Positions 62,426 through 64,000 of a stretch of 64,000 nt of DNA are shown here, piece after piece. Each line of letters opens with the position of its first letter. Positions within the stretch are counted from its first letter, which is position 1. Position numbers and translations under genes: made by a program. The notes under the pieces were generated by a model that saw nothing but the letters and a program-made list of their open reading frames with translations, did not search any database and was not told the DNA's origin. The stretch comes from Silicimonas sp. (GTDB taxonomy: Bacteria; Pseudomonadota; Alphaproteobacteria; Rhodobacterales; Rhodobacteraceae): the NCBI GenBank assembly GCA_013002465.1, contig JABDJO010000018.1:1-64000 (forward strand), written 5' to 3'.

Positions 62426-63280
62426 ATGGGCAAGGAACGCATCGACACGCGCGCCATCGGGCTGGACGTCGGACTTGGCTTCGTCAAATGGCTGACGGGG
62501 GCCGAGAACCTGCACTACGGGCTGTGGACCGGGCTTGATGCCGTTGCGGAGAACACGGGTCGGGCCCAAACGGCCTATACGGACAAGCTGTTTGGCTATC
62601 TGCCCGACGGACCGCTTTCGATCCTCGATATCGGTGGCGGTGCCGGGGAAACCGCGCGCAAGCTGATCGCACTGGGCCACAAGGTCGAAATCGTCGTACC
62701 CTCGGTCGTGCTGGCCGCGCGATGCCGGGCAAACGCGCCCGAAGCACAGGTCCACGAAATGACCTTCGAAGCCTTCGAAACCGATACTCGCTACGACCTC
62801 TGCCTGTTTTCGGAAAGCTTTCAATACATCCCGCTCAACATTGCCCTTGGGAAGGCGCTGGAACTACTGAAACCCGGCGGTCACATCCTGATTGCTGATT
62901 GCTTCCGGTCCGAAGACTTTGCCCCCGACAGAGTAACCCGCACCCCGGGTGGTGGGCACCCGATCGCGGACTTTCGCGATCAGATCGCAGCACTCCCGGT
63001 TGAAACCCGAAAGGAAGAGGACATCACCGAGGCCGTCGCTCCTTCCATTGATCTGGAACAGGCGTTGTTTCATGTCTTTGGCGACGCCGTTACCCGAGTG
63101 GAAACCGAACTGGCCGAGAAACGGCCCAAATCCCGATGGCTTCTGAACCGGGCGCTAAAGATGCTGATGAGCCGACGGCGGCGCAACAGGCTCGATATCC
63201 GTTTGCGCGGGCACGAACGGACAAGTGCGGCGTTCATAAAGAACAATCGCTACCTGATCACATTGTTGGAAAAGCTCTGA
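62426..63280 (+). CDS. SAM-dependent methyltransferase
   Basis: A 284-residue class I methyltransferase. Motif I is LSILDIGGGAGETARKLIAL, followed by VEIVVPSVVLAAR, YDLCLFSESFQYIPL and LKPGGHILIADCFR. The N-terminus IGLDVGLGFVKWLTGAENLH recalls cyclopropane-fatty-acid synthase-like methyltransferases. The C-terminal 100 residues are basic and helical, without a known domain. Substrate unknown. It is 60 bp after the exported-protein gene, so it could be in the same transcript. It is the last gene before the dnaE2 upstream region. Confidence 0.85.
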   Translation: MGKERIDTRAIGLDVGLGFVKWLTGAENLHYGLWTGLDAVAENTGRAQTAYTDKLFGYLPDGPLSILDIGGGAGETARKLIALGHKVEIVVPSVVLAARCRANAPEAQVHEMTFEAFETDTRYDLCLFSESFQYIPLNIALGKALELLKPGGHILIADCFRSEDFAPDRVTRTPGGGHPIADFRDQIAALPVETRKEEDITEAVAPSIDLEQALFHVFGDAVTRVETELAEKRPKSRWLLNRALKMLMSRRRRNRLDIRLRGHERTSAAFIKNNRYLITLLEKL

Positions 63281-63528
63281 TCAAGGAACGCTCGCGGAGC
63301 CTTGTCGGCCCAATTCGGGACGAGGGACTTGGACAACTTCAAAGCCCCGCGAAACGCTAACCTTTACCCCTCGCACTCGTTACGCAGCCTACCATTTACT
63401 CGCTTCACCACTCGATACGATGTGCGGACCGACTTTCGTGACCTTCAATTGATCGGCCGATCCGCGGTGAAATGCGTCTTTGAAAAGAACCACCCCACCA
63501 TTGCGACCTGAGCCTAGGGTGACCCCTT

Positions 63529-63545
63529 GTTGACCTAGGGTCAAC
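63529..63545. promoter_or_regulatory. 17-bp palindrome, possible operator
   Basis: gttgacctagggtcaac is a perfect palindrome with 7-base arms and a 3-base centre. It contains CCTAGGGT, which occurs once more 20 bp upstream at 63513. It lies about 145 bp ahead of the dnaE2 start. Confidence 0.5.
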
Positions 63546-63574
63546 TCGTGACAGGCCAGCTAGTGTGATCCAAT

Positions 63575-63642
63575 CGTGAATCCGTGCGCTTGTGCGTGAA
63601 CTTGATCGTGAACGCAGACTGGAAAAAAGAACAAAGCGTGAA
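63575..63642 (+). repeat. four direct CGTGAA repeats upstream of dnaE2
   Basis: CGTGAA occurs at 63575, 63595, 63607 and 63637, with spacings 20, 12 and 30 bp; a near copy CGTGAC is at 63547. All are on the plus strand, in the region just before dnaE2. Such direct copies could be operators; no known family is recognised. Confidence 0.5.
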
Positions 63643-63643
63643 T
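63629..63643 (+). promoter_or_regulatory. candidate LexA (SOS) box
   Basis: gaac-aaagcgt-gaat matches the alphaproteobacterial LexA site GAAC-N7-GAAC (the complement of GTTC-N7-GTTC) except for the last base. It lies 48 bp before the dnaE2 start, a natural place for SOS control of an error-prone polymerase. Confidence 0.5.
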
Positions 63644-63690
63644 ATCATGCAAGGCAGCCAGGAATCACACGCCAATCGTCGGGAATCACC

Positions 63691-64000
63691 ATGGGCTTTG
63701 CCGAGCTTTCGGCCATGTCGAACTTTACCTTCCTTACCGGGGCCAGCCACGCCGAGGAATATATCGACCGTTCTGCCCTTCTGGGGCTTTCGGCCATTGC
63801 GATTGCCGATGTGAACTCGGTTGCAGGCATCGTGCGCGCCCATACCCGCGTGCGCGAGATCACCCGCGAGGTCAAAGAGCGTCTGACCGCCGACCTGATT
63901 GGCCCCCCCGCCCCGGTGGCGGGCTGGGAAGGCAGAACACAGGTGTTCGAAAGCTATCCCGGCAGCGCGTTCCGACAGCGCAATGGCACACTTTCGGATA
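63691..64000 (+). CDS. dnaE2: error-prone DNA polymerase (partial, N-terminus)
   Basis: The first 103 residues of a DnaE2/ImuC-type polymerase, cut by the window end. The start MGFAELSAMSNFTFLTGASH and the following EEYIDRSALLGLSAIAIADV and NSVAGIVRAHTRV match the PHP domain at the N-terminus of DnaE-type alpha subunits, with the DnaE2 wording (ASHAEEYIDRSA). The ATG at 63691 has only a weak Shine-Dalgarno. DnaE2 performs error-prone synthesis in SOS mutagenesis, usually with ImuA and ImuB. Those genes are not upstream here. Confidence 0.9.
   Translation, partial: MGFAELSAMSNFTFLTGASHAEEYIDRSALLGLSAIAIADVNSVAGIVRAHTRVREITREVKERLTADLIGPPAPVAGWEGRTQVFESYPGSAFRQRNGTLSD

What the first reader, a model, noticed from the sequence alone, without database searches (positions are those of the whole stretch)
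63529..63643. Complex upstream region of dnaE2 with palindrome, CGTGAA repeats and a LexA-like box
A 17-bp palindrome, four CGTGAA copies and GAAC-N7-GAAT lie within 115 bp, and dnaE2 lacks the usual upstream imuA-imuB. SOS control by LexA is expected, but the extra repeats point to a second regulator of this mutagenic polymerase.
Basis: partly seen in the sequence, partly recalled or inferred. Interest (0 to 1): 0.5.

Follow-up and report, generated by a model that had tools for sequence, protein, structure and literature searches.

The report
Layered control region before dnaE2
The stretch in front of this bacterium's mutation-making DNA polymerase gene holds an ordinary DNA-damage (SOS) switch plus an extra set of conserved DNA signals, shared only with its nearest relatives, that most likely bind a second regulator not yet identified.

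Summary
GTTGACCTAGGGTCAAC (63529-63545), four CGTGAA (63575, 63595, 63607, 63637) and GAAC-N7-GAAT (63629-63643) lie before dnaE2 (ATG 63691). The box is a LexA-type operator: 59 of 60 family loci carry one, the genome's lexA, recA and imuB have matching boxes, and here it fills the spacer of the only promoter match (TGGAAA-17-TATCAT). The fourth CGTGAA belongs to that box. The palindrome and other repeats form a separate module, TTGNC-N(4-6)-GGTCAA, GTGA-N7-GTGAA, then more CGTGAA, kept at nearly fixed distances from the box in the window and 4 of 60 other loci, all in one 10-row DnaE2 clade. dnaE2 without imuA-imuB is normal here. A further layer turned up: GANTC, the CcrM/GcrA methylation site, lies beside the LexA box in 53 of 59 dnaE2 and 53 of 56 imuB promoters, never inside it (16 of 99 other upstream regions have one). 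The window has one at 63662. In 22 operon-type loci the GANTC-LexA promoter is written into the coding end of imuA with locked synonymous codons. Binding and methylation are all untested.

The parts
63691..64000 (+). dnaE2, 5' part (gene continues on the contig; 1010 aa in all)
   Evidence: ORF and Pfam DNA_pol3_alpha, DNA_pol3_finger, HHH_6; start ATG 63691 by comparison with relatives, 9 of 10 of which have stops in the frame upstream
63629..63643 (+). LexA-type box GAACAAAGCGTGAAT
   Evidence: Box of this form in 59 of 60 family dnaE2 loci; matching boxes at own lexA, recA, imuB
63620..63648 (+). Predicted sigma-70 type promoter TGGAAA-N17-TATCAT; the LexA box lies in its spacer
   Evidence: Only promoter match in 63250-63760; aligned -35/-10 and box in relatives
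63530..63544 (+).
   Evidence: TTGNC-N(4-6)-GGTCAA at -98 to -100 (once -88) from the box in 4 of 60 other loci plus the window
63565..63580 (+). 11-bp direct repeat GTGATCCAATCGTGAA (holds the first CGTGAA)
   Evidence: GTGA-N7-GTGAA at the matching place in the same 4 loci; absent in the other 55 loci with a box; background 0.0006 per 300 bp
63595..63600 (+). Second CGTGAA copy (-34 from the box)
   Evidence: At -35 in L139, -34 in L146, -24 in L143
63607..63612 (+). Third CGTGAA copy (-22 from the box)
   Evidence: At -22 in L139 and L146
63662..63666 (+). GANTC site (GAATC), +33 from the box start, near the predicted transcript start
   Evidence: 9 of the 10 nearest relatives have GANTC at +26 to +35 with varying middle base
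63683..63687 (+). Second GANTC (GAATC) just before the start codon
   Evidence: Sequence; positions of extra sites vary among relatives
63578..63582 (+). GANTC (GAATC) overlapping the first CGTGAA
   Evidence: Sequence; not conserved at this place

Best explanation
The region controls a stand-alone, SOS-regulated dnaE2. (1) LexA binds GAAC-N7-GAAT inside the promoter spacer and blocks RNA polymerase until DNA damage inactivates it (inferred from a strongly conserved box and matching boxes at lexA, recA and imuB). (2) A second DNA-binding protein, most likely a dimer, docks on the palindrome TTGACC-N3-GGTCAA and extends along the GTGA-N7-GTGAA and CGTGAA half-sites toward the -35 element, modulating (probably activating) the promoter. 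Conservation of the sites is shown; the protein, its binding and its sign are inferred. (3) A GANTC site near the transcript start, as at most dnaE2 and imuB promoters of the family, makes the promoter a candidate for CcrM methylation and GcrA-linked cell-cycle control. Conservation is shown; methylation and effect are inferred.
For: LexA-type box in 59 of 60 family loci at a fixed place next to the -10, single promoter match around it, boxes at own lexA, recA, imuB, one LexA-domain gene. Palindrome-like site and GTGA-N7-GTGAA both present in the window and 4 of 60 other loci, neither in the other 55 loci with a box; background 0.002 and 0.0006 per 300 bp; CGTGAA positions match; all five in one supported 10-row clade. 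GANTC beside the box in 53 of 59 dnaE2 promoters (controls 2-14 of 59) and 53 of 56 imuB promoters (controls 3-21 of 56), against 16 of 99 other upstream regions; gcrA present in this genome.
Against: No binding, methylation or expression data. The module is missing from half of the 10-row clade. The window lacks the -35 GANTC that 36 of 59 relatives show (GACTG there), and at that place the middle base is almost always C, which could be a promoter-sequence preference. Own lexA and recA promoters show no GANTC near the box. ccrM itself was not looked for. Family loci share ancestry, so P values overstate independence.
Confidence: 0.6

Rival explanations
1. Only LexA matters: the CGTGAA copies are extra or decayed LexA half-sites (GTGAAC holds GAAC) and the palindrome is incidental.
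For: Two of the extra copies in the window read CGTGAAC, giving GAAC-N8-GAAC at 63598-63613; own lexA has three GAAC in tandem.
Against: In L139 and L146 the copies read CGTGAAA or CGTGAAG, so GTGAA, not GAAC, is conserved; spacings are 20 and 12 bp, not 11; the palindrome is kept together with the repeats.
Confidence: 0.12
2. The upstream block is a second promoter or a small RNA gene rather than an operator array.
For: Further short conserved patches lie upstream in the five genomes, e.g. GGGAC-A-GG-A and TGCGAC; a weak stem appears (z about -2.6).
Against: No Rfam match up to E=5, no second promoter match, gaps not in codon register, no convincing covariation-scale structure. The palindrome's left arm carries the same mismatch in three relatives, as in a DNA site rather than a hairpin.
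Confidence: 0.1
3. The module has no function and is shared by descent only.
For: The carriers are relatives, and some clade members lack it.
Against: Surrounding DNA has diverged (mean column identity 59%, gapped alignment) while GGTCAA, GTGA-N7-GTGAA and their spacing stay; the copies repeat one hexamer.
Confidence: 0.12
4. The palindrome is a transcription terminator of the upstream methyltransferase gene.
For: A 7-bp stem with 3-nt loop could form, and the upstream gene is codirectional.
Against: No T-run follows and the terminator scan does not report it; it lies about 250 bp beyond the stop codon; relatives keep a mismatch in one arm.
Confidence: 0.03

Closest known systems
Alphaproteobacterial LexA (SOS) operator, GTTC-N7-GTTC / GAAC-N7-GAAC
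   Same: Direct repeat GAAC-N7-GAAT in the promoter spacer; same form at own lexA, recA, imuB
   Different: Last base T instead of C, as in many of the relatives; extra module upstream
ImuA-ImuB-DnaE2 mutasome cassette (PMC12926913, passages)
   Same: DnaE2 and ImuB genes present, both with LexA-type boxes
   Different: Genes are split: dnaE2 alone, imuB alone on another contig, no imuA-like sequence in the 37 split-clade loci checked
GANTC (CcrM/GcrA) cell-cycle promoters of Caulobacter (PMC4287350, passages; PMC7987155, section 11)
   Same: GANTC at or near the core promoter; gcrA present
   Different: Combined with a LexA box that it does not overlap (0 of 59 and 0 of 56); PMC7987155 ascribes GANTC at imuA and ruvC to such overlap
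DriD / WYL SOS-independent damage regulator, site ATACGAC-N7-GTCGTAT (PMC12340889, passages)
   Same: A pseudo-palindromic activator site for DNA-damage genes
   Different: Sequence does not match TTGACC-N3-GGTCAA or CGTGAA
LysR-type regulator sites (recalled, no call)
   Same: The anchor fits T-N11-A within a dyad (63531 to 63543), with further sites toward the promoter
   Different: Anchor lies farther upstream than usual (about -120 from the predicted start) and the further sites are direct repeats

Membership tests
LexA-regulated SOS gene (Alphaproteobacteria) | GAAC-N7-GAAC-type direct repeat in the promoter | tested here: met
   GAACAAAGCGTGAAT in the spacer of the predicted promoter; 59 of 60 family loci
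LexA-regulated SOS gene (Alphaproteobacteria) | lexA present with an autoregulatory box of the same type | tested here: met
   One LexA-domain gene; three GAAC at 11 bp before it; recA box
LexA-regulated SOS gene (Alphaproteobacteria) | LexA binding and induction by DNA damage | not testable with these tools
   Needs footprint and expression data
ImuA-ImuB-DnaE2 cassette | imuA, imuB and dnaE2 in one operon | tested here: not met
   Methyltransferase gene upstream of dnaE2; imuB alone on C91
CcrM/GcrA-controlled promoter | GANTC at the core promoter, conserved in relatives | tested here: met
   GAATC at 63662; 53 of 59 dnaE2 loci; 9 of 10 nearest relatives at +26 to +35
CcrM/GcrA-controlled promoter | gcrA gene present | tested here: met
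   C124:24306-24824, E 1.5e-48
CcrM/GcrA-controlled promoter | ccrM gene present | not tested
CcrM/GcrA-controlled promoter | Methylation of the site and methylation-dependent expression | not testable with these tools
   Needs methylome and reporter data
DriD (WYL) target | ATACGAC-N7-GTCGTAT-like site | tested here: not met
   By inspection of 63281-63690 against the motif quoted in PMC12340889
LysR-type regulator target | T-N11-A dyad with the regulator known or divergently encoded | tested here: inconclusive
   Dyad fits; upstream neighbours are codirectional and no regulator is identified

The most novel reading that the evidence does not exclude
Mutasome genes of Rhodobacteraceae are gated twice: LexA derepression and a CcrM-methylated GANTC at or beside the promoter together tie error-prone synthesis to the replication state of the locus. 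In operon-type species this GANTC-LexA promoter is written into the 3' coding end of imuA under codon-level constraint and outlived the loss of imuA in split-type species. In the window's own clade an unknown regulator, acting through the palindrome and CGTGAA array, forms a third gate on dnaE2.
Probability: 0.35. Interest if true: 0.75.

Novelty: new variant of a known kind. Interest (0 to 1): 0.55.

Why it matters
DnaE2 and ImuB make mutations under stress. A second or third control layer would mean that mutagenesis is tied to more than DNA damage. The GANTC result gives a concrete test of whether damage-induced mutagenesis is linked to the cell cycle through DNA methylation in alphaproteobacteria, and it does not fit the overlap explanation given in PMC7987155 for GANTC sites at SOS genes in Caulobacterales.

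Tried and rejected
'Not conserved' (rejected): I first concluded that the palindrome and repeats were absent in relatives, from the syntenic locus L020 and the family-wide exact-palindrome search (2 hits in 393 other genomes, 3 for the reversed control; note). The nearest-relative loci overturned this.

Terminator: no T-run and no terminator match at the palindrome. Rfam: nothing up to E=5. Structured RNA: only a weak stem. N-terminal extension of DnaE2 from GTG 63592: 9 of 10 relatives have stops in that frame. Dispersed repeat: the 421-bp region matches the own genome only once. DriD and Cada2 sites: quoted motifs do not fit. A TTGACC-N3-GGTCAA regulon in the own genome: three perfect sites, and 14 sites with up to one mismatch against 7 for the reversed control, not convincing; the other two perfect sites (C106, C65) lack the GTGA repeats by inspection.

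Rows dropped: 8 of 44 loci gave no anchor; L150 of the 60 dnaE2 loci and L207, L210, L222, L237 of the 60 imuB loci had no box and were left out of the position counts; of 47 operon-orientation loci 26 gave an ImuA C-terminal reading and 22 entered the codon count.

Full report
Setting. The window is the first 64,000 bases of contig C47 of a 137-contig genome. Its nearest named DnaE2 relatives are Boseongicola-like Rhodobacteraceae MAGs. dnaE2 starts at ATG 63691 and encodes 1010 aa. Upstream on the same strand is a methyltransferase gene ending at 63280, leaving a 410-bp gap with no divergent gene.

Check of the observation. The palindrome alone is not rare, but the CGTGAA cluster is unusual: no other hexamer in the window has four non-overlapping copies in 68 bp, and 20 simulated windows averaged 0.05. 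The fourth CGTGAA belongs to the LexA-like box.

LexA layer. From (346 of 394 family genomes match, one genome per genus) I fetched 60 upstream regions from the top of the list, skipping three. GAACN7GAA[CT] occurs in 59 of 60, typically GAACAAAACGTGAAT, mostly followed at once by a TAT-type -10. In the window the box fills the 17-bp spacer of the only promoter match in 63250-63760. The own genome has three GAAC at 11-bp period before lexA, GAACAAGAAGAGAAC before recA and GAACAAATAGCGAAC before imuB. Binding is inferred.

dnaE2 without imuA-imuB. Of 30 named relatives with 62-85% DnaE2 identity, none has imuB upstream in the same direction; one (L068) has it nearby on the other strand. Operon-type loci have more distant DnaE2 (about 48-61%). 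So the split is ordinary here.

Second module. I first thought that the palindrome and repeats were private to the window, because the syntenic relative L020 lacks them and the exact palindrome is at chance level in 393 other family genomes. The nearest loci corrected this. Measured from the box start, CGTGAA sits at -54, -34, -22 in the window; -55, -35, -22 in L139; -53, -34, -22 in L146; -54 in L142; -44, -24 in L143. The patterns TTGNC-N(4-6)-GGTCAA and GTGA-N7-GTGAA both occur within 300 bp upstream of the box in the window and these four loci, and neither occurs in the other 55 relatives with a box; background rates are 0.002 and 0.0006 per 300 bp. The alignment shows GGTCAA, GTGA and CGTGAA invariant in otherwise diverged DNA. 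The five lie in one 10-row clade of the DnaE2 tree (support 100/100), whose other five rows lack the module; the tree needs three changes, for example one gain and two losses. Because copies in L139 and L146 read CGTGAAA or CGTGAAG, the conserved core is GTGAA, not the LexA half-site GAAC. The most economical reading is a dimer-binding anchor plus a tandem array leading to the -35 element. The regulator, its binding and its sign are inferred, and the known sites I compared do not fit.

GANTC layer. In the 59 dnaE2 promoters with a box, GANTC occurs within -30 to +45 of the box in 53; seven control 5-mers of like composition occur in 2 to 14; GANTC in -130 to -31 occurs in 4; inside the box in 0. 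It clusters at -12 to -10 (36 occurrences, at the upstream edge of the -35) and downstream around +19 to +37. The middle base is nearly always C at the first place (33 C, 3 G), so a promoter-sequence preference is possible there; at the second it varies freely (15 G, 10 T, 7 A, 7 C), as expected if the site as such is selected. For imuB, 60 regions were taken (344 of 394 genomes match; ten rows skipped): 56 have a box, 53 of these have GANTC in -40 to +45, 39 have the tandem GACTCGACTC, and 0 have GANTC inside the box. One control 5-mer, TGNCA, is also high at imuB (21 of 56). In 85-bp regions upstream of other genes in 29 loci the figure is 16 of 99. Fisher P values are 1e-20 and 3e-23, but the loci share ancestry, so these are indicative only. 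The window has GACTG at the -35 place, hence no site there, and GAATC at 63662 (+33); 9 of its 10 nearest relatives have GANTC at +26 to +35. The own lexA and recA promoters show no GANTC near the box. gcrA is present; ccrM was not looked for.

A promoter inside imuA. Of 47 loci with imuB in operon orientation, 26 gave a reading of the ImuA C-terminus and 22 fit DST...KNK.GT. In all 22 the codons are GAC TCG .. AAG AAC AAA .. GGA; threonine is ACT in 21 and the second threonine ACA in 19, although ACT, GGA and ACA make up 6.5%, 7.7% and 11.7% of the codons for those residues in the neighbouring imuB and dnaE2. The DNA so fixed is GACTCGACTC followed by a LexA box about 40 bp before imuB. The same elements stand free before imuB in split-type genomes such as this one, where no imuA-like sequence was found in the 37 split-clade loci checked. 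A promoter overlapping the imuA reading frame that outlived loss of imuA would explain both; this is inference.

Literature. PMC7987155 (passages and section 11) reports conserved GANTC at imuA and ruvC in Caulobacterales and attributes it to overlap with the LexA box; in the loci counted here the two do not overlap. PMC4287350 (passages) links GANTC position to timing in Caulobacter. PMC11514494 (passages) reports that depletion of CcrM in Agrobacterium raises RecA and ImuA orthologs. PMC6473078 (passages) lists predicted LexA sites in Dinoroseobacter; its main text has no dnaE2. PMC12926913 (passages) describes DnaE2 groups. I found no paper on GANTC or GcrA at dnaE2 (open-licence library only).

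Verdict. A real SOS promoter of ordinary type with two less ordinary layers.

Noticed in passing
L043, L045, L047-L049, L051, L052, L054-L056, L059-L067, L079, L080, L096 (22 loci), about 40 bp before imuB: A GACTCGACTC + LexA-box promoter lies inside the 3' coding end of imuA, with rare synonymous codons (ACT, GGA, ACA) held almost invariant.
   Followed up: partly
L101 (own C91) around 1791-1850, - strand, and 56 family imuB loci (L200-L259): imuB promoters carry a tandem GACTCGACTC 25-35 bp before the LexA box (39 of 56; own imuB too).
   Followed up: partly
L072, L074, L082, L087, L089, L094, L095, L097, L098: In more distant alphaproteobacterial loci with a box upstream of imuA, the -35-like TTGACTC (holding GANTC) precedes the box in 9 of 14 (counted from its printout).
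   Followed up: no
L018:4650-4724 (contig C47, beyond the window end): Own DnaE2 ends early (1010 aa...LTPQGVR) and some near relatives (L263, L264, L085, L265) end at about the same place while others (L260, L261, L021) run on to a ...RTDIWG-like tail: possible repeated loss of the C-terminal part.
   Followed up: no
L103 / own C106:5187-5201: An exact second copy of TTGACCTAGGGTCAA lies between a creatininase-like ORF and a DEAD-box RNA helicase gene; it might be another target of the same regulator.
   Followed up: partly
window 63511-63527: A second CCTAGGGT lies 21 bp before the palindrome's CCTAGGGT (GCCTAGGGTGACC); it is not kept in the four relatives that share the module.
   Followed up: partly
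window 63281-63528 and L260-L263: Further short patches (GGGAC-A-GG-A, TGCGAC, GAAATAC) are conserved upstream of the module in the five genomes, unexplained.
   Followed up: partly
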